This document shows positions 47,797 through 55,437 of a DNA stretch of 64,000 bases, in pieces. Under the pieces are notes generated by a model. It was not told the DNA's origin. It ran no database searches and saw only the letters and a program-made list of their open reading frames with translations. Position 1 is the first letter of the stretch; every line of letters starts with the position of its first letter. Made by a program: the position numbers and the translations under genes. Source of the stretch: Candidatus Venteria ishoeyi (GTDB lineage Bacteria; Pseudomonadota; Gammaproteobacteria; Beggiatoales; Beggiatoaceae); contig NZ_JAUCGJ010000002.1 in the NCBI RefSeq assembly GCF_030378065.1, forward strand, positions 1 through 64,000, read 5' to 3'.

Positions 47797-49131
47797 ATGT
47801 TGATATCTTCCCTGTTTTATTCATTATTAGCTTCTATCGGTGTTTTGCTTGGTAGCGACACTAGCATGGTTGAAGCAGCGATTCAGGCGCGCCAACTCCA
47901 AGCTGAGGCGAGGCGTGCCAATGCTGAGCTGTCAATGATACAACACAGCAATCCCTTGCCTGAATCAGGTGGGGAAAACAGACTGGAGAAAATTAACGCT
48001 GAACAATTGCCTGAGTCGATAACACCCATTACAGCCGATGATGCGCTACCCTTATCAATTACCGTGGATGAAACTGATGATAATATGCCGTTATTGATTG
48101 AAATGGCAGATGGCCCGGTAGACGATGCACGGGATTATGAATTTATTGATCACCCGCCTTCAAATGATAAGAAATATCTGCATTATCCTGACTGGTTCAA
48201 AAAAAGTCAGTTAAATTTACATCATGATTTAAAAGTGGCGGCAAAACAAAACAAAAATTTATTATTGTATTTTGCTGCACCAAATTGTGCTTATTGTGAG
48301 CAGTTACAGGATGTTATCCTAGAACAACCTGATATTAAAACCTATATCCGGCATTATTTTGACGTGGTGGGCATTAATGCGATGGGCGGCATTGTACTCA
48401 CCACCCCTGAAGGCATTCTGACAACAGAAAGTGAATACGCAGCCTCCGAAGAAACCTATTTCACCCCCTCATTATTGTTTTATGTCTATGATAAAACACT
48501 GAAAAAAGCACATTCTGTCTTACGCCTGCGGGGTTATTACCCGGCTTATGTAATTCGTGCTGCATTAGATTATGTACAGGGTAAGGAATATCTCAAAGAA
48601 AGTTTTAATGAATATATTGCCGCAGTAAAACCACCACCGCCAAAAGATTATACGCTACATAAAAATCCCTTGTTTATGCTGCCACCTTATCAATTAGAAC
48701 GCAGAAAAACACCCGGAAAAAGACCATTACTGGTGATTTTTGAACAGGGGCAATGTCATGCCTGTGACCGTTTTCATCAACAGCACATGACCAATCCAGA
48801 TATTCTTGAAAAATTAAAACAAATGGAAGTGGTACAATTCAATTTGCAGGGGGACACACCATTAACCACGCCGCAGGGACGAAAACTTACAGCCAGTGCA
48901 TGGGCTAAAAAATTAGGTTTATTTTATACACCTTCTCTTCTATTTTTTGATGAGTGGGGACGTGAAATTTTACGCATCGAATCGATTGTTGGTTTGCACC
49001 GTTTGAATGTCGCGCTGGATTTCGTGCTGGAACAGGGCTATCGCAATTATGGACCTAATCTGATGCGTTGGTATATGCATAAATTGCGTAACCAATCAAA
49101 GCAGCAGCGAACATTAATGAATAAGAAGTAA
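47797..49131 (+). CDS. Two-domain thioredoxin-like protein
   Basis: 444 residues with a possible N-terminal signal (about 1-20, weak), an unstructured acidic region (about 30-115), then two thioredoxin-like domains: first CAYC at 164-167, second CHAC at 320-323, each with a later cis-Pro TPSLLF motif. Two redox-active CxxC sites suggest a disulfide reductase or isomerase, in the style of SoxW. If the signal is real it works in the periplasm. It sits upstream of the signalling cluster; whether they share transcription is unclear. Confidence 0.7.
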   Translation: MLISSLFYSLLASIGVLLGSDTSMVEAAIQARQLQAEARRANAELSMIQHSNPLPESGGENRLEKINAEQLPESITPITADDALPLSITVDETDDNMPLLIEMADGPVDDARDYEFIDHPPSNDKKYLHYPDWFKKSQLNLHHDLKVAAKQNKNLLLYFAAPNCAYCEQLQDVILEQPDIKTYIRHYFDVVGINAMGGIVLTTPEGILTTESEYAASEETYFTPSLLFYVYDKTLKKAHSVLRLRGYYPAYVIRAALDYVQGKEYLKESFNEYIAAVKPPPPKDYTLHKNPLFMLPPYQLERRKTPGKRPLLVIFEQGQCHACDRFHQQHMTNPDILEKLKQMEVVQFNLQGDTPLTTPQGRKLTASAWAKKLGLFYTPSLLFFDEWGREILRIESIVGLHRLNVALDFVLEQGYRNYGPNLMRWYMHKLRNQSKQQRTLMNKK

Positions 49132-49237: not shown

Positions 49238-49600
49238 ATGCGTGATGATATGATCATGGCTGCATTAAATGAGTTAAATAGCAGTTCCGCAGATATTGAA
49301 GCTTCAGCCGTTATTTCTACCGATGGACTGGTGCTCTCAGCAATTTTGCCACAAACAATGGATGAAGATCGTGTTGGAGCAATGGCTGCTGCAATGTTAT
49401 CTTTAGGGGATCGCACTGCTTCAGAATTAGCGCGCGGTAATCTTGAACAGGTGCTGATAAAAGGTAGCGCCGGTTATGTACTGATGATGTATGCAGGTGA
49501 AAATACTGTTGTCAGCGTTGTAACAAATGCCAGTGCAAAGCTGGGACTAATTTTTCTGGATGTTAAACGCTCTGCTGAGGCTATCAGCAAACTGGTATAA
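49238..49600 (+). CDS. Roadblock/LC7 domain protein (MglB-like)
   Basis: 120 residues, all one roadblock domain (ALNELNSSSADIEASAVIST, GAMAAAMLSLGDRTASELAR, then NLEQVLIKGSAGYVLMM). In bacteria these proteins are often regulators or GAPs of the small GTPases MglA and CvnD. A matching GTPase is 1.8 kb downstream, and the two flank CZB and pseudo-receiver genes. A strong AAGGAG precedes the ATG. Confidence 0.9.
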   Translation: MRDDMIMAALNELNSSSADIEASAVISTDGLVLSAILPQTMDEDRVGAMAAAMLSLGDRTASELARGNLEQVLIKGSAGYVLMMYAGENTVVSVVTNASAKLGLIFLDVKRSAEAISKLV

Positions 49601-49640
49601 ACATTTATCGTAATGAAAATAATACGATGGAGAACAGACA

Positions 49641-50000
49641 ATGGCGGGTAAAGCCTTTTTTTTGCAACGCCTCAACGATCATGTGCAATATTTGAAAAAA
49701 ATCAATGCCACCTTAGAAGGTAAGAGTGATTTTCAAGGTACTGCGCACACTGATTGTAAATTGGGGCAATGGATTTATGGTGAAGGTGCTGATGAAGTCG
49801 CCTCCCTGTCCGATCCTAAAGCACAGGAAACATTTGATGCGCTGAAAGAACCCCATGAAAAATTTCATGATATCAGCAAAGATGCGCTGGCTAAAAAAAT
49901 AGCGGGAGATGAAGAAGGGGCGCGTAGAGCAGAAACGGATATGCATGTCTTATCCACCAATATTTATAACAAATTATTAGATTTAGACGGCATGTCTTAA
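49641..50000 (+). CDS. CZB-domain protein (zinc-binding chemoreceptor-type domain), stand-alone
   Basis: 119 residues, entirely a CZB domain: RLNDHVQYLKKINATL with the first His, HTDCKLGQW with His and Cys (HxxC), and HEKFHDIS with the later His. CZB domains bind zinc with three His and one Cys and usually sit at the C-terminus of chemoreceptors or diguanylate cyclases, sensing zinc or hypochlorous acid. Here it is free-standing and lies 40 bases after the roadblock gene, in the same unit. Confidence 0.85.
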   Translation: MAGKAFFLQRLNDHVQYLKKINATLEGKSDFQGTAHTDCKLGQWIYGEGADEVASLSDPKAQETFDALKEPHEKFHDISKDALAKKIAGDEEGARRAETDMHVLSTNIYNKLLDLDGMS

Positions 50001-50030
50001 TTAAGCTAAACACAGCTTAATTAATTTTTT
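49999..50030 (+). terminator. Rho-independent terminator after the CZB gene
   Basis: AATTAAGCT-AAACAC-AGCTTAATT, followed by AATTTTTTAT. The stem begins inside the stop codon of the CZB gene. It divides the cluster into a roadblock-CZB part and a downstream part, unless antitermination occurs. Confidence 0.8.
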
Positions 50031-50032
50031 AT

Positions 50033-50068
50033 AGCAAAAACAGTGTTTTATAAAATACTGTTTTTGCT
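50033..50068. terminator. Second hairpin between CZB and pseudo-receiver genes
   Basis: AGCAAAAACAGT and ACTGTTTTTGCT are perfect 12-bp arms around a 12-base AT-rich loop. The arms are A/T-rich with runs of A and T that could terminate in either direction. It directly follows the terminator at 49999. Confidence 0.55.
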
Positions 50069-50161
50069 TAGGATTGAATATCCAGAAATTTATAATAAGC
50101 TGTTGGAACTGGATCAAATGTCCTGATTTCCAATCAGTATAATCAGGATTTTGCATTATCA

Positions 50162-51355
50162 ATGATGCCAAACTCAACGAAAAACCCGATACGCATTATG
50201 AAACAGGGGATGGATACCCGTACATCTGATATGCTGAAAATGGTATTTGAAAAACATGCGCAAGCGGCTTTTATTCTGGTTGAAGAAACGCAGGCCGAAG
50301 CGTGTATTTTTGATATGGATACATTAGGCTCTAAAGCACTGTGGGAAATTTATCAACAACAACACCCAGCTATGCCCACTTTGGTATTGTCATTATATGA
50401 CTGGGTTGGTAAAAAGCACCTGTTTATCAAAAAGCCAGTTAAGTTAACCATCCTATTAGAACAACTTACATTATTAAAACAACAAGTCGAACAATTTCGC
50501 CTTACTTTAACTGAATTGATACCTGCAAGCCAGACTGAAACCCAGACTAAAGCAGGTACTGCTTCTCCTAAAAAGCAAACACAGGATGTCAAACACACAA
50601 CTCAAACATTAGAGCAATATCAACAACATTATTTTAGCCAATATGCTGATAACAGGATTTGTGGTGAGCATCCTGACATTAACCTGAAAGATCGTAAAGC
50701 AGTTGCCAGCATCAGTTATCATGCCAATGAATATTTTCAAGGTTTATTCAGCAAAGCCATGCATTTGGCAAAACAACAGCAGTGCTGTATTCACATTCAG
50801 GGATTTTTTGGTGAGTTACTGATTCATCCAGCTAAAAATCGTTTATTATCCAGTGTGCAGGAAGAACGTTTATTTACGATGGCAACCATGCCAATTAAGG
50901 CTGAACATGTGAAAATGCTGACAGTGCCGCCGGAAGAATTAGAACAACAGATTAAAACTGCCAGTGTTGCGTTTTATCATTATTATTTAGAACAATTCAC
51001 CTGGAAACTGTCGCTGTGGACTGCGCGTGGTCGTATCATGGCTGACACACCGCTGGATCAAGCCATTGTTTTATCACGCTGGCCGAATTTTACGCGTTTA
51101 TTGATCCCCCCCCATGCCATGCAGATCACCGCACTGTGGATAGAAACAGCTTGCAGTCTGGCAGAAACGGCTCGTTTATTGGAAATTCCACAACGCGATG
51201 TGTTTACTTTTTATAATGCGGTATATGCCATTGGTCTGGCATATCCCGATCATCAAACCAAAGATCATCACAAAACGCTAAAACTCAGTGCTAAACACAC
51301 TGAACAACGGGGCTTGTTCAGAAAAATTTTGTCACACCTTGGACTAAAGATTTAA
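50162..51355 (+). CDS. Pseudo-receiver protein of unknown function, 397 aa
   Basis: Residues about 10-115 look like a receiver fold without normal chemistry: EACIFDMDTLGS around the phosphoacceptor position and IKKPVKLTILLEQL at the end. A low-complexity Gln/Thr linker (about 120-165) follows, then a 220-residue C-terminal domain (HPDINLKDRKAVASISY..., ETACSLAETARLLEIPQRDVF, the latter helix-turn-helix-like). I do not recognise the C-terminal family. It lies 7 bases before the GTPase gene, so the two are co-translated. Two Met codons begin the frame; an internal start is possible, as no strong Shine-Dalgarno is seen. Confidence 0.65.
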   Translation: MMPNSTKNPIRIMKQGMDTRTSDMLKMVFEKHAQAAFILVEETQAEACIFDMDTLGSKALWEIYQQQHPAMPTLVLSLYDWVGKKHLFIKKPVKLTILLEQLTLLKQQVEQFRLTLTELIPASQTETQTKAGTASPKKQTQDVKHTTQTLEQYQQHYFSQYADNRICGEHPDINLKDRKAVASISYHANEYFQGLFSKAMHLAKQQQCCIHIQGFFGELLIHPAKNRLLSSVQEERLFTMATMPIKAEHVKMLTVPPEELEQQIKTASVAFYHYYLEQFTWKLSLWTARGRIMADTPLDQAIVLSRWPNFTRLLIPPHAMQITALWIETACSLAETARLLEIPQRDVFTFYNAVYAIGLAYPDHQTKDHHKTLKLSAKHTEQRGLFRKILSHLGLKI

Positions 51356-51361
51356 AATATT

Positions 51362-51901
51362 ATGGCAGATTATAAAATTATTTTTACCGGCCCCTCTGGT
51401 GCGGGCAAAACTACCGCCATTACTGCTTTAAGTGATATTGCCACCATCCGCACCGATGCTGCTTCCAATGAAATACTCGATAGTTATATTGGCAAAAAAG
51501 GGATTACTGTAGCAATGGATTATGGGCTGATGAAGCTGGGTAATCGCGATAAAATTCATCTGTATGGTACGCCAGGGCAAGAACGCTTTGACTTTATGTG
51601 GGAGATTCTTATTAAGGGTGGTTTGGGATTAATTCTATTGATTGATCATGCCCACCGTTATCCTATTCGGGAAATGAAAGCGTTTTTACATGCTTTTAGA
51701 GATTTCTTAAAAGAGGGTAAGCTTGTTATTGGTATTACGCGCATGGATGTCAAACCTGAACCAGGCCTGGAACTCTATTACGAGCACTTCAGAGCATTAA
51801 ACATCAATCCACCAATATTTGAAATTGATGCCCGTAATAAACAGGATGTTTCTTTATTGGTGCAAGCCTTATTATATTCACTTGATCCCGGTATAACATA
51901 A
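51362..51901 (+). CDS. Small GTPase, COG2229/MglA-like
   Basis: 179 residues. G1 GPSGAGKTT at about 9-17, G3 YGTPGQERFD near 71-80, G4 TRMD near 123, G5-like IDARNKQD near 158. This is the family of bacterial Ras-like GTPases (MglA, CvnD, Arl-like), with TPGQ in G3. MglA controls polarity and gliding with its roadblock partner MglB. A roadblock protein is encoded upstream in the same cluster. The spacing to both neighbours is short. Confidence 0.88.
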   Translation: MADYKIIFTGPSGAGKTTAITALSDIATIRTDAASNEILDSYIGKKGITVAMDYGLMKLGNRDKIHLYGTPGQERFDFMWEILIKGGLGLILLIDHAHRYPIREMKAFLHAFRDFLKEGKLVIGITRMDVKPEPGLELYYEHFRALNINPPIFEIDARNKQDVSLLVQALLYSLDPGIT

Positions 51902-51916
51902 TAGGAACCCCATTTT

Positions 51917-52684
51917 TTGTTTCATCGTCCCCCCCCTGCTTCAGATATTGCAGAAGAAGAAAATCCTTACCTTTTATCATTTTCTGATATTCTCGCGGGT
52001 TTATTGGCTATTTTTATTTTGGCATTGATCGCCTTGATGATTAAACTGGATCAACAAACTGATTTAGCCCAGGAAACCCGCCAAAAAGTACAACAAGCTT
52101 TACTTGAATTAGCGCAGGTTGAAGAAATGCGCCGGGAATTATTGGAAGAGGTGAAACGCAAGCTGGCATTGCAAAATGTGCAGGTGGAAATCACTGATAA
52201 TTACTCTGTACTCAGTATTCCAGAAACTCAACTCCATTTTAAATCCGGTCACTACACAATCCCGGAGGCTAAATACAAAACCGTGTCTCTCATTGGTGGC
52301 GTGCTGGAAAAAGCCTTGCACGCTTCGGGACGCTTAAATCTTATTGATACCATTTTTATTGAAGGCCATACCGATAGCCAACCACTGACGCATTCAGATA
52401 TGGGCAATTGGGGCTTATCCACCTATCGTGCAATTGCACTATGGAAATTCTGGAGCGAAAAACCCGGTGCTCAAAAACAATTTAAACGCATGAAAAATCG
52501 TCAGGGCAAACCATTGTTTTCAGTCAGCGGTTATGCTGCCACCCGGCGTTTATTCAAAAATGATTTTACCCCGCAAATACGCCAGAAAAACCGCCGCATA
52601 GACCTGCGCTTTACCATGCGCACCCCGCTCAGCGGTGATCTGATGAAAATGCTGGAAGATTTTAAACAATCAGGCATCCAGTAG
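51917..52684 (+). CDS. MotB/OmpA-like stator-type protein
   Basis: 255 residues from a TTG at 51917, AGGA upstream. One N-terminal membrane helix with an acidic residue at its start (FSDILAGLLAIFILALIALM), a coiled coil (about 45-85), then an OmpA-like peptidoglycan-binding domain (EGHTDSQPL near 150, RRIDLRFT near 220). The Asp in FSDI corresponds to the proton-channel Asp of MotB/ExbD-type subunits and of ZorB. No MotA/ZorA-type partner gene is adjacent. The link with the GTPase and roadblock genes suggests a motility or envelope motor element, but this is inference. Confidence 0.75.
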   Translation: MFHRPPPASDIAEEENPYLLSFSDILAGLLAIFILALIALMIKLDQQTDLAQETRQKVQQALLELAQVEEMRRELLEEVKRKLALQNVQVEITDNYSVLSIPETQLHFKSGHYTIPEAKYKTVSLIGGVLEKALHASGRLNLIDTIFIEGHTDSQPLTHSDMGNWGLSTYRAIALWKFWSEKPGAQKQFKRMKNRQGKPLFSVSGYAATRRLFKNDFTPQIRQKNRRIDLRFTMRTPLSGDLMKMLEDFKQSGIQ

Positions 52685-52803: not shown

Positions 52804-55437
52804 TTAATCCGGGGAAGTGACGGGTGCTATAGGTTTTTCTTGCAGCACTGGTGCAGATGTTTCCGCTGTCTCTGGCTCCTCTGCTTGAATCGGTATCTCA
52901 GGCTGTGCCGTTACCTGTTGTTGCAGTACGCTCAATGCTGCATTGAGCTTTTCGCTTACACTGTCTGCCGGACTTAATGTCAGGGCAAATTCAAGATAAG
53001 CCATTGCTTGTTCTTGCTGACCCTGCTCAGTTAATTTCTGACTTTTCAGTAAATAACGCAGTGCAATGCGATTACCCGCCCGCTCAAATTGTTCCTGATC
53101 TGCGGGTGTAAAATTCGTCTCGGCACTGAACAGGGTGCGCCATGTCAGCACCAGTTTTTTGAGATGTGGCAGGGAATCTTCATCTTTTGCCGCAAACTCA
53201 ACCACCCTGTCAAAGAATACCTTGTGCAGCTTGGCATCACGCAATAAAGGATGTGTCGGGTCGATATGCATTATCCGCGTCCGCACATCAAACAAGTCTT
53301 CACCGGCATCATCTGGCAACAACTTCCCCTGCTCACGGTAAGCTTGATATTTTTGCCCCAGATCGTTTAACAAGCGCTGCCGGTGCGCATTGATTTCCTG
53401 CTGATAAGCTTTAAAGCTGGGAGATTCAGGATATAAGGTTAAAGCTTCATTTAATGCTTTGTCCAGGGCGCTAAAATCTTCCTGCTGGAGATAATCACCA
53501 ACAAGCTGGCTGCGCTCCAATTTCCATTGCAAACTGTCTCGCTCAGGTGAGGCTTCAGGTAACAGTTGTTGCCAATCAGCAAGTAAAACCTTGACTTGAT
53601 CATAGGCTTTGCTGGTGAGCAGCTTCTCAGCCTCGGTTCGGTAGGTCAGTGCTAATGCGGGGTCTTGTAATTGTTCATGCTGTGGTGCAATGCGCCTAAT
53701 CTGTTGCCGGGTTTCCGTCAGGCAAGGGGTTCTATCATGCAAGGGCGCTTGAATAACGCTGAGACAGTCCTGGTATTTTTGGGTCAGGTTTTGCAGGCGC
53801 TGCGCTTTTTCCTGTTGAATTTTTTGTTGCTGCATATTTAAGCGTTGCGCATCAGGATACATTGCATCTAATTCAGCCAGGTATGCCGTGGCCTGCTCAA
53901 ACTTATCTGCAACACTGGCAGCGGTGATTTTTTGCAGGTACTGCGCTGTTACCTGTGCCTGGACATCACTATCTTGCAAAATTAAGCTTCTGATTTGTGG
54001 TGAAAAAGCTTGCTCCAGATAGGAAAAAACTGTTTTTCCAGCCTTGTTTTCTTCGGACTGTTGAGTATAAAAATCAACCAGTGCTTTTTTAACTGCACCA
54101 TCATCCGTATTTAAAACGGCTTTTTGAAATGCTGGAGGCCGCGTTTCCAAATGGCTGATACTATTTTCTTGACCTGTCAGCACCCCGTTTCTGACGGATT
54201 GGTATTGCCAGATGAAAAAATAGAACCAAAATGTACCGGCAAGTAATATCACAGCCAGTGAAGCAGCGCCTAATTTTAAGGCCGTAGCATGAGTTTTTTG
54301 AGGAAACAAGGCTGCAAAAAATTTATCGGGTGTTTGGGTGCGTTGCTGTTTATCAAAAACCAGACCCTGGGATAAGGCAGACCATTGTTTTGCTGTCAGC
54401 ACTTTAAGCTGGGTTGGTAAAAAGTTCTTGGAACTGGCTTCAGGGCAGGCTTTTCGACCAAAAGGATGCACCCCGGATAATAGCTCGTAAGCCAGACAAG
54501 CTAAGGTATAAACCGCGCTGCAACGTGTTGCGCTATCCAGTTCCGTTAACATCTCACAACTTAGATAGGCATCAATATTATTGAGGGTCTTTTCCGCCAC
54601 GGCATCTGGTTGTTCTTGCGCCACCTGTCGCAGCAAACGAATCAGCCCAAAGTCGAGTACTTTGATTGTTTTTTGCACGGGTTCATAAAAAATACTATGT
54701 GATGTGAGCGCAAGATGGGCAACACCGTGTGCATGTGCATATTCAACGGCAAGCGTCACGCCTTGCAAGATAATCTTAACCTCGGCAAGGGGCAGACCAG
54801 CGGGATTTTTTTCCAGCAGTTCAAATAAAGACAGCCCCGGCGGGGGTTCAGCAACAATAAACACGCTGCTGCCTGCACGCCCAAGTTCATAAACCGGGCT
54901 GATATGAGGATGCTCCAGATGCTGATAATGTTCAAACCAGGTGCTAAACATTCTGATAGCATGGGGACAACATTTTAACTCAGCTTGCAAAAAATGCAGC
55001 ACAACACTGCGTCGACCAGTCTGCTGTCCTTCGGGCGCTAAATCAACTGCGCGCCAGGTTTCTCCTGAGAGACTATCTGGCAGGGCTTCTTTTAAGCGAT
55101 ATGCCTGTTTAATAATGCTATCTGTGGCTAATATTGCTTGCGCTTCATTATTCCAGCCATCCTGCCATTGCGCTGGCGCGCGCCAATCCGCACGGTTATC
55201 CGGGGTTTCAGACTTTCCGCTTGATGCATGTTTTTCATATTGTTGTAATTGCATATCCAGCTTAGCATAGTCCGGCATGGATAATTGCCGGGAATCACGC
55301 AATGTATCGATATGCTTGCGTAATTCAACTAGATGCTCAGGATTTTTATCCAGGGTTTCAGCAAGCAGGCGGATCAGTTGACCAAATCCGGTTTCACCCC
55401 GGATAAATGTATCAAGTGCGGCTTTGAAATCGTCCAC
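52804..55437 (-). CDS. Transmembrane serine/threonine pseudokinase
   Basis: 877 residues. An unassigned N-terminal helical region (about 1-130) is followed by a kinase-like domain (about 140-380), membrane segment (about 397-420, AASLAVILLAGTFWFYFFIW) and a long helical C-terminal region (about 420-850) with TPR-like repeats. The catalytic motif reads HLALTSHSI where HRDLKPxN is expected: Asp, Lys and Asn are all lost. The VAIK lysine is also replaced (VVLHFL). DFG is kept (LDFGLI). It should bind but not phosphorylate; a scaffold or sensor role is likely. It faces the stator-like gene (convergent, 120-base gap) and is downstream of the TPR lipoprotein on its own strand. Confidence 0.82.
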   Translation of the reverse strand: MDDFKAALDTFIRGETGFGQLIRLLAETLDKNPEHLVELRKHIDTLRDSRQLSMPDYAKLDMQLQQYEKHASSGKSETPDNRADWRAPAQWQDGWNNEAQAILATDSIIKQAYRLKEALPDSLSGETWRAVDLAPEGQQTGRRSVVLHFLQAELKCCPHAIRMFSTWFEHYQHLEHPHISPVYELGRAGSSVFIVAEPPPGLSLFELLEKNPAGLPLAEVKIILQGVTLAVEYAHAHGVAHLALTSHSIFYEPVQKTIKVLDFGLIRLLRQVAQEQPDAVAEKTLNNIDAYLSCEMLTELDSATRCSAVYTLACLAYELLSGVHPFGRKACPEASSKNFLPTQLKVLTAKQWSALSQGLVFDKQQRTQTPDKFFAALFPQKTHATALKLGAASLAVILLAGTFWFYFFIWQYQSVRNGVLTGQENSISHLETRPPAFQKAVLNTDDGAVKKALVDFYTQQSEENKAGKTVFSYLEQAFSPQIRSLILQDSDVQAQVTAQYLQKITAASVADKFEQATAYLAELDAMYPDAQRLNMQQQKIQQEKAQRLQNLTQKYQDCLSVIQAPLHDRTPCLTETRQQIRRIAPQHEQLQDPALALTYRTEAEKLLTSKAYDQVKVLLADWQQLLPEASPERDSLQWKLERSQLVGDYLQQEDFSALDKALNEALTLYPESPSFKAYQQEINAHRQRLLNDLGQKYQAYREQGKLLPDDAGEDLFDVRTRIMHIDPTHPLLRDAKLHKVFFDRVVEFAAKDEDSLPHLKKLVLTWRTLFSAETNFTPADQEQFERAGNRIALRYLLKSQKLTEQGQQEQAMAYLEFALTLSPADSVSEKLNAALSVLQQQVTAQPEIPIQAEEPETAETSAPVLQEKPIAPVTSPD

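What the first reader, a model, noticed from the sequence alone, without database searches (positions are those of the whole stretch)
49238..52684. Possible new signalling-to-envelope module: roadblock, CZB, pseudo-receiver, small GTPase and stator-like protein
Five genes run on one strand with short gaps: an MglB-like roadblock protein, a stand-alone CZB domain, an unassigned pseudo-receiver protein, an MglA/CvnD-like GTPase and a MotB/ZorB-like OmpA protein without a MotA-like partner. Roadblock plus Ras-like GTPase pairs control polarity and gliding in Myxococcus (MglA/MglB) and appear in actinobacterial conservons. A soluble zinc-binding CZB and a stator-like subunit in the same cluster is a combination I do not know. 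The link is inference from neighbourhood, and a terminator at 49999 may split it into two transcripts.
Basis: partly seen in the sequence, partly recalled or inferred. Interest (0 to 1): 0.78.

Follow-up and report, generated by a model that had tools for sequence, protein, structure and literature searches.

The report
Scattered Zorya phage-defence genes
Four of the five genes form an already described kind of small-GTPase signalling cluster, but the fifth is one part of an anti-virus machine (Zorya) whose parts are normally encoded side by side and here, and in related sulfur bacteria, are scattered over the chromosome, where ordinary defence-system searches would miss them.

Summary
The five ORFs are real, but they are two unrelated things. 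(1) Roadblock, CZB, receiver-like protein and GTPase form a conserved cluster in most genera of the host family and in other Gammaproteobacteria. It matches the published Group 3 MglA system (G4 without Lys, G5 'DAR', adjacent receiver protein, MglB); only the zinc-type CZB gene is extra. (2) The 'stator-like protein without a MotA partner' is a type I ZorB (PADLOC 280 bits; closest solved relative Shewanella ZorB, 8VVN; Asp24 kept). Its orthologues lie away from the GTPase in both other genomes that have them. The partners exist in this genome on other contigs: ZorA (C64), ZorC (C35), ZorD (C40). This set occurs in the same four of 96 genomes surveyed (ZorB in three). A second set, ZorA, ZorB and ZorC, occurs in exactly the same nine. 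In two closed genomes all four Zorya genes lie more than 490 kb apart. In other families 10 of 13 ZorC loci sit in ordinary zor clusters. Best reading: dispersed type I Zorya systems; the GTPase-ZorB adjacency is local to this genome. Defence activity and its mechanism are inferred from homology.

The parts
49238..49600 (+). MglB-type roadblock/LC7 protein, 120 aa
   Evidence: Pfam Robl_LC7 1.2e-13; PDB 7f8m 2.6e-24; orthologues 68-82% identical in the same position in relatives
49641..50000 (+). stand-alone CZB protein, 119 aa, with His14, CxLGxW (Cys39) and HxxxH (His72/His76)
   Evidence: Pfam CZB 2.1e-14; motifs; adjacent orthologues, often a second copy after the GTPase
50033..50068 (.). 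AT-rich near-perfect palindrome, 16-bp hairpin, probable terminator between CZB and the receiver gene
   Evidence: fold z -5.4, 0 of 200 shuffles as good
50082..50125 (+). remnant of the 3' end of a second CZB gene (reads EIYNKLLELDQMS-stop against NIYNKLLDLDGMS-stop)
   Evidence: sequence; alignment
50162..51355 (+). receiver-like protein of the Group 3 MglA system, 397 aa, conserved C-terminal domain
   Evidence: AlphaFold pLDDT 86; receiver fold; 47 homologues
51362..51901 (+). Ras-like GTPase, Group 3 MglA type: GPSGAGKT, GTPGQE, TRMD, DAR
   Evidence: motifs; orthologues next to the receiver protein in relatives
51917..52684 (+). ZorB, type I Zorya (alpha set), TTG start, Asp24 in the transmembrane helix, OmpA peptidoglycan-binding domain
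   Evidence: PADLOC PDLC00608 3.5e-84; PDB 8vvn_B 8.6e-59; Asp24 invariant in 12 homologues; partners ZorA G000:C64:68163-69848, ZorC G000:C35:47689-49194, ZorD G000:C40:9685-12900

Best explanation
The interval is the end-to-end contact of two independent systems. Genes 1-4 are a Group 3 MglA signalling cluster: a Ras-like GTPase, its MglB-type roadblock regulator, a receiver-like adaptor and a zinc-type CZB protein. By analogy they switch surface motility or transcription in response to a signal. Gene 5 is ZorB of a type I Zorya anti-phage system. Its partners ZorA, ZorC and ZorD are intact but encoded at separate sites. By homology, ZorA5B2 is a proton-driven motor anchored to peptidoglycan that senses envelope disturbance at phage entry and recruits ZorC and ZorD to attack incoming DNA. 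The parts assemble in trans although each gene is transcribed from its own locus, often behind an unrelated gene. Shown here: identities, intact key residues, co-occurrence, and dispersal in closed genomes. Inferred: assembly, defence activity, and the function of the GTPase cluster.
For: ZorB identity: searches (280 bits ZorB against 50 bits for the best MotB-family model; 8VVN is Shewanella sp. ANA-3 type I ZorAB, whose Asp24 is crucial for defence, PMC11890865), Asp24 in the window protein. Partners: ZorA 400 bits, ZorC 300 bits and ZorD 1110 bits; ZorC keeps Glu415 and His457, ZorD keeps the Walker A and DE motifs. Co-occurrence over 96 genomes: alpha ZorA, ZorC and ZorD each in G000, G004, G014 and G031, ZorB in three of these. 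Beta ZorA, ZorB and ZorC each in exactly the same nine genomes; pairwise-identity matrices correlate at r 0.87-0.96. Dispersal: closed genomes G010 (A 2.95, B 3.45, C 2.25, D 1.65 Mb) and G029 (A 3.95, B 3.10, C 0.87, D 1.45 Mb), with ZorD about 1000 bits. Control: outside the family 10 of 13 ZorC loci lie in zor clusters against 1 of 14 inside, Fisher p 3e-4. GTPase cluster: and PMC4316618.
Against: No phage test exists. A PADLOC match shows family, not defence. Alpha ZorB was not found in G031. The beta set in G000, G014, G031, G006 and G013 has a ZorC without a fully conserved EH pair, and no beta-specific ZorD was found there. The tight 15-bp spacing of ZorB behind the GTPase, with no terminator between them, suggests co-transcription in this genome, so some coupling cannot be excluded. 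Related genomes are not independent samples, so the p-values overstate the evidence. The alpha set itself is dispersed only in draft genomes; the closed genomes carry the beta set.
Confidence: 0.8

Rival explanations
1. A true five-gene module: the GTPase/roadblock switch controls a ZorAB-type proton-driven motor, as MglA controls the AglRQS motor in Myxococcus gliding. The host family contains gliding filaments.
For: Same strand, 15-bp gap, no terminator between GTPase and ZorB; a ZorA-like partner exists in the genome.
Against: The adjacency is absent in both other genomes with the ZorB orthologue. ZorB is missing from most genomes with the GTPase cluster. ZorB co-occurs with ZorC and ZorD, which a motility motor would not need.
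Confidence: 0.07
2. The scattered ZorA, B, C and D homologues have been domesticated for a non-defence envelope or DNA-repair role, and so no longer need to travel as one cassette.
For: Single genes among housekeeping genes (ftsY, NuoD-like, fur); the beta ZorC of five genomes has a degenerate EH motif; the sets appear co-inherited within the family.
Against: The alpha set keeps the known key residues of ZorB, ZorC and ZorD. Distribution is patchy, typical of defence. Alpha ZorD sits behind a second candidate defence pair, PDC-M38A/B.
Confidence: 0.12
3. Dispersal is an assembly or binning artefact.
For: Most genomes in the survey are draft assemblies.
Against: Two closed genomes show the four beta genes more than 490 kb apart. 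In G000 the alpha genes lie inside contigs of 60-137 kb, in a bin with 0.35% contamination.
Confidence: 0.01

Closest known systems
Type I Zorya (ZorABCD), e.g. Shewanella sp. ANA-3 (8VVN)
   Same: All four protein families, Asp24 of ZorB, Glu/His of ZorC, SNF2 helicase ZorD
   Different: Genes are unlinked instead of one cluster; alpha ZorA is 561 aa, shorter than the roughly 700-aa PADLOC profile
Group 3 MglA system of beta/gamma-Proteobacteria (Wuichet and Sogaard-Andersen 2014)
   Same: GTPase with DAR motif and no G4 lysine, coupled MglB, neighbouring receiver-type protein
   Different: An additional stand-alone CZB gene, often two copies; in other Gammaproteobacteria also PAS, protoglobin and two unassigned proteins
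MglA/AglRQS gliding machinery of Myxococcus
   Same: A Ras-like GTPase and a MotA/MotB-type motor in one organism
   Different: No conserved linkage here; the motor subunit is ZorB, not AglQ/AglS

Membership tests
Type I Zorya | ZorB with TM Asp24 and OmpA-type domain | tested here: met
Type I Zorya | ZorA: MotA/ExbB-type membrane part and long cytoplasmic tail | tested here: met
   561 aa, PDLC00601 5.1e-120; the tail is shorter than the 699-position profile
Type I Zorya | ZorC with EH signature | tested here: met
   PF15611 161 bits, PDLC00617 300 bits, Glu415/His457 in all four alpha ZorC; degenerate in the beta ZorC of this genome
Type I Zorya | ZorD SNF2-type helicase | tested here: met
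   PDLC00627 1110 bits; GLGKT and DE invariant
Type I Zorya | zor genes in one locus (criterion of cluster-based detection, not of mechanism) | tested here: not met
Type I Zorya | anti-phage activity | not testable with these tools
   needs an experiment
Group 3 MglA system | G5 motif DAR and G4 without lysine | tested here: met
   TRMD at 126, DAR at 156; criterion in PMC4316618
Group 3 MglA system | neighbouring protein with N-terminal receiver fold | tested here: met
Group 3 MglA system | C-terminal winged helix-turn-helix in that protein | tested here: inconclusive
   match lists were filled by the receiver domain
Group 3 MglA system | one or two coupled MglB genes | tested here: met
   roadblock gene in the window cluster and in 12 of 20 relative loci
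Group 3 MglA system | placement in the Group 3 clade of the MglA tree | not tested
   no reference tree built
MotAB-type stator | best match to MotB-family models over their cut-off | tested here: not met
   best NCBIfam MotB-family match 50 bits, far below its cut-off of 259

The most novel reading that the evidence does not exclude
A lineage of filamentous sulfur bacteria keeps complete, functional Zorya systems whose four genes are permanently dispersed and vertically inherited, i.e. a multi-protein phage-defence machine turned into a distributed core-genome function, with each part expressed from a different host operon and one part (ZorB) placed under the transcription of a GTPase signalling cluster.
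Probability: 0.4. Interest if true: 0.8.

Novelty: new variant of a known kind. Interest (0 to 1): 0.6.

Why it matters
Defence systems are found and defined by genes lying together. If complete Zorya systems persist with scattered genes, cluster-based surveys undercount them, and co-localisation is not required for function or for joint inheritance. It also gives a simple test of whether lone ZorA/ZorB-like genes in other genomes, usually read as odd stators, have partners elsewhere in the same genome.

Tried and rejected
MotA partner next to ZorB: none in the window; the real partner is on contig C64. Conserved flanks around each zor gene: none found between G000 and relatives, so a conserved second neighbourhood was rejected. 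General loss of operons as the whole explanation: nuoC is at C17 and C33 while a NuoD-like gene stands beside ZorC at C35, but the GTPase cluster stays together, and ribosomal-protein operons of the related BOGUAY genome are normal (PMC4679880), so the loss is partial. SNF2 proteins at C44 and C91 were considered as a beta ZorD: they match DpdE models as well as or better than ZorD models and were not adopted. TAACTGA repeats known from Beggiatoaceae: 14 copies on both strands of the window, not followed up. Literature searches for scattered or orphan Zorya genes and for gene order in this group found no report of dispersed Zorya, in an open-access library only. PDB searches for the C-terminal half of the receiver protein were inconclusive.

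Full report
What is in the sequence. Five ORFs lie on the + strand as reported. Pfam gives roadblock/LC7, CZB, no family over cut-off for the third protein, small GTPase and OmpA. The CZB protein keeps the His, Cys and HxxxH ligand pattern. A 16-bp hairpin stands between CZB and the third gene, followed by a remnant of a CZB 3' end; a second CZB copy after the GTPase is common in relatives.

The first four genes. In the host family (G000-G042 of the survey) the GTPase and the receiver-like protein are adjacent in nearly every genome that has the orthologous pair, usually preceded by the roadblock and CZB genes. In Thiodiazotropha, Sedimenticola, tubeworm endosymbionts and other Gammaproteobacteria the order is typically unknown protein - receiver protein - GTPase - unknown protein - roadblock, followed by CZB or a PAS protein and, in some, a PhnD-like protein, with a protoglobin gene before the roadblock in some.

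This is the Group 3 MglA system of Wuichet and Sogaard-Andersen (PMC4316618): beta/gamma-Proteobacteria, G4 without lysine, G5 motif DAR, one or two MglB, and a neighbour with a receiver fold and a predicted winged helix. The window GTPase has TRMD and DAR, and the neighbour folds as a receiver over residues 7-125. The C-terminal winged helix was not confirmed here. In Snodgrassella, a mutation in an orphan mglB, in a genome with a Group 3 mgl locus, alters type IV pilus-dependent motility (PMC11112851). A motility role here is therefore plausible but inferred.

The fifth gene. The OmpA protein matches PADLOC ZorB at 280 bits, and its closest solved relative is ZorB of Shewanella sp. ANA-3 (8VVN). 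Asp24, needed for defence in that system (PMC11890865), is at position 24 here and invariant in 12 homologues. Orthologues above 60% identity exist in only two of the other 95 genomes searched, G014 and G004, in both cases away from the GTPase cluster.

The partners. A search for MotA/ExbB proteins in this genome found a 561-aa protein at C64 that matches ZorA at 400 bits. Its orthologues occur in the same genomes G014 and G004 and in G031. The ZorC domain EH_Signature is at C35 and C86, and ZorD at C40 (1110 bits). The alpha set (ZorA C64, ZorB C42, ZorC C35, ZorD C40) is complete in G000, G014 and G004; G031 has A, C and D. A beta set (ZorA C95, ZorB C41, ZorC C86) occurs in exactly nine genomes for each of the three genes. 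Identity matrices of beta A, B and C correlate at r 0.87-0.96. Four beta genomes (G005, G010, G015, G029) keep the Glu and His of ZorC and have ZorD-like matches (about 970-aa proteins in three; split over two contigs in G005); in the other five the EH pair is degenerate by eye in the alignment, and no beta-specific ZorD was found. The alpha ZorD could serve both sets in three of those five; that is a guess.

Dispersal. In G000 the alpha genes lie inside separate contigs of 60-137 kb. In the closed genomes G010 and G029 the four beta genes are more than 490 kb apart (ZorD confirmed). Neighbours differ between genomes. In G000 most zor genes sit directly behind a same-strand unrelated gene: ftsY, a NuoD-like gene, fur with a 4-bp overlap, the GTPase. 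As a control, ZorC loci outside the family were examined: 10 of 13 lie in ordinary clusters; the three isolated ones all belong to one other family (in one of the ten the EH gene was placed by Pfam rather than by the home-made model). Inside the family, 1 of 14 has ZorB nearby (G015). Fisher p is 3e-4; relatedness makes this optimistic.

Interpretation. The adjacency of GTPase and ZorB is a feature of one genome, probably from the rearrangement that scattered the zor genes. Related giant sulfur bacteria are rich in introns, insertion sequences and MITEs (PMC4853749), which is a possible cause. Whether the scattered systems still defend against phage is not shown; conserved key residues and joint inheritance argue that the parts still work together. 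The motor-and-recruitment mechanism given for ZorA-D is taken from published Zorya work (PMC11890865), not from anything measured here.

Limits. The survey covers 96 genomes around this one and 369 drawn from the class. No complex was modelled. The literature check covers open-access papers only.

Noticed in passing
window 52804-55437 (-): Protein-kinase-like protein with C-terminal repeats; the catalytic loop reads HLALTSHSIFY instead of HRDLKxxN while DFG is kept, so it is probably a pseudokinase.
   Followed up: no
window 47797-49131 (+): Protein with two thioredoxin-like domains upstream of the roadblock gene.
   Followed up: no
L138:1-3089 (G050:C161): A Ser/Thr protein kinase is fused to the Group 3-type GTPase, next to a long receiver-like protein, a hint that phosphorylation feeds this GTPase.
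   Followed up: no
L123-L130: A second, paralogous locus in the same family: GTPase - receiver-like protein - GTPase, usually followed by a roadblock gene.
   Followed up: partly
L276:7910-9831 (G000:C40): Alpha ZorD lies directly behind a candidate defence pair PDC-M38A/M38B (AAA ATPase and small partner).
   Followed up: no
L363, L364, L365 (G157, G272, G369): Isolated ZorC genes in a second family, suggesting that dispersed Zorya is not limited to the host family.
   Followed up: no
L189:254-1552 (G004): A receiver/histidine-kinase hybrid precedes the receiver-GTPase pair, a possible upstream input.
   Followed up: no
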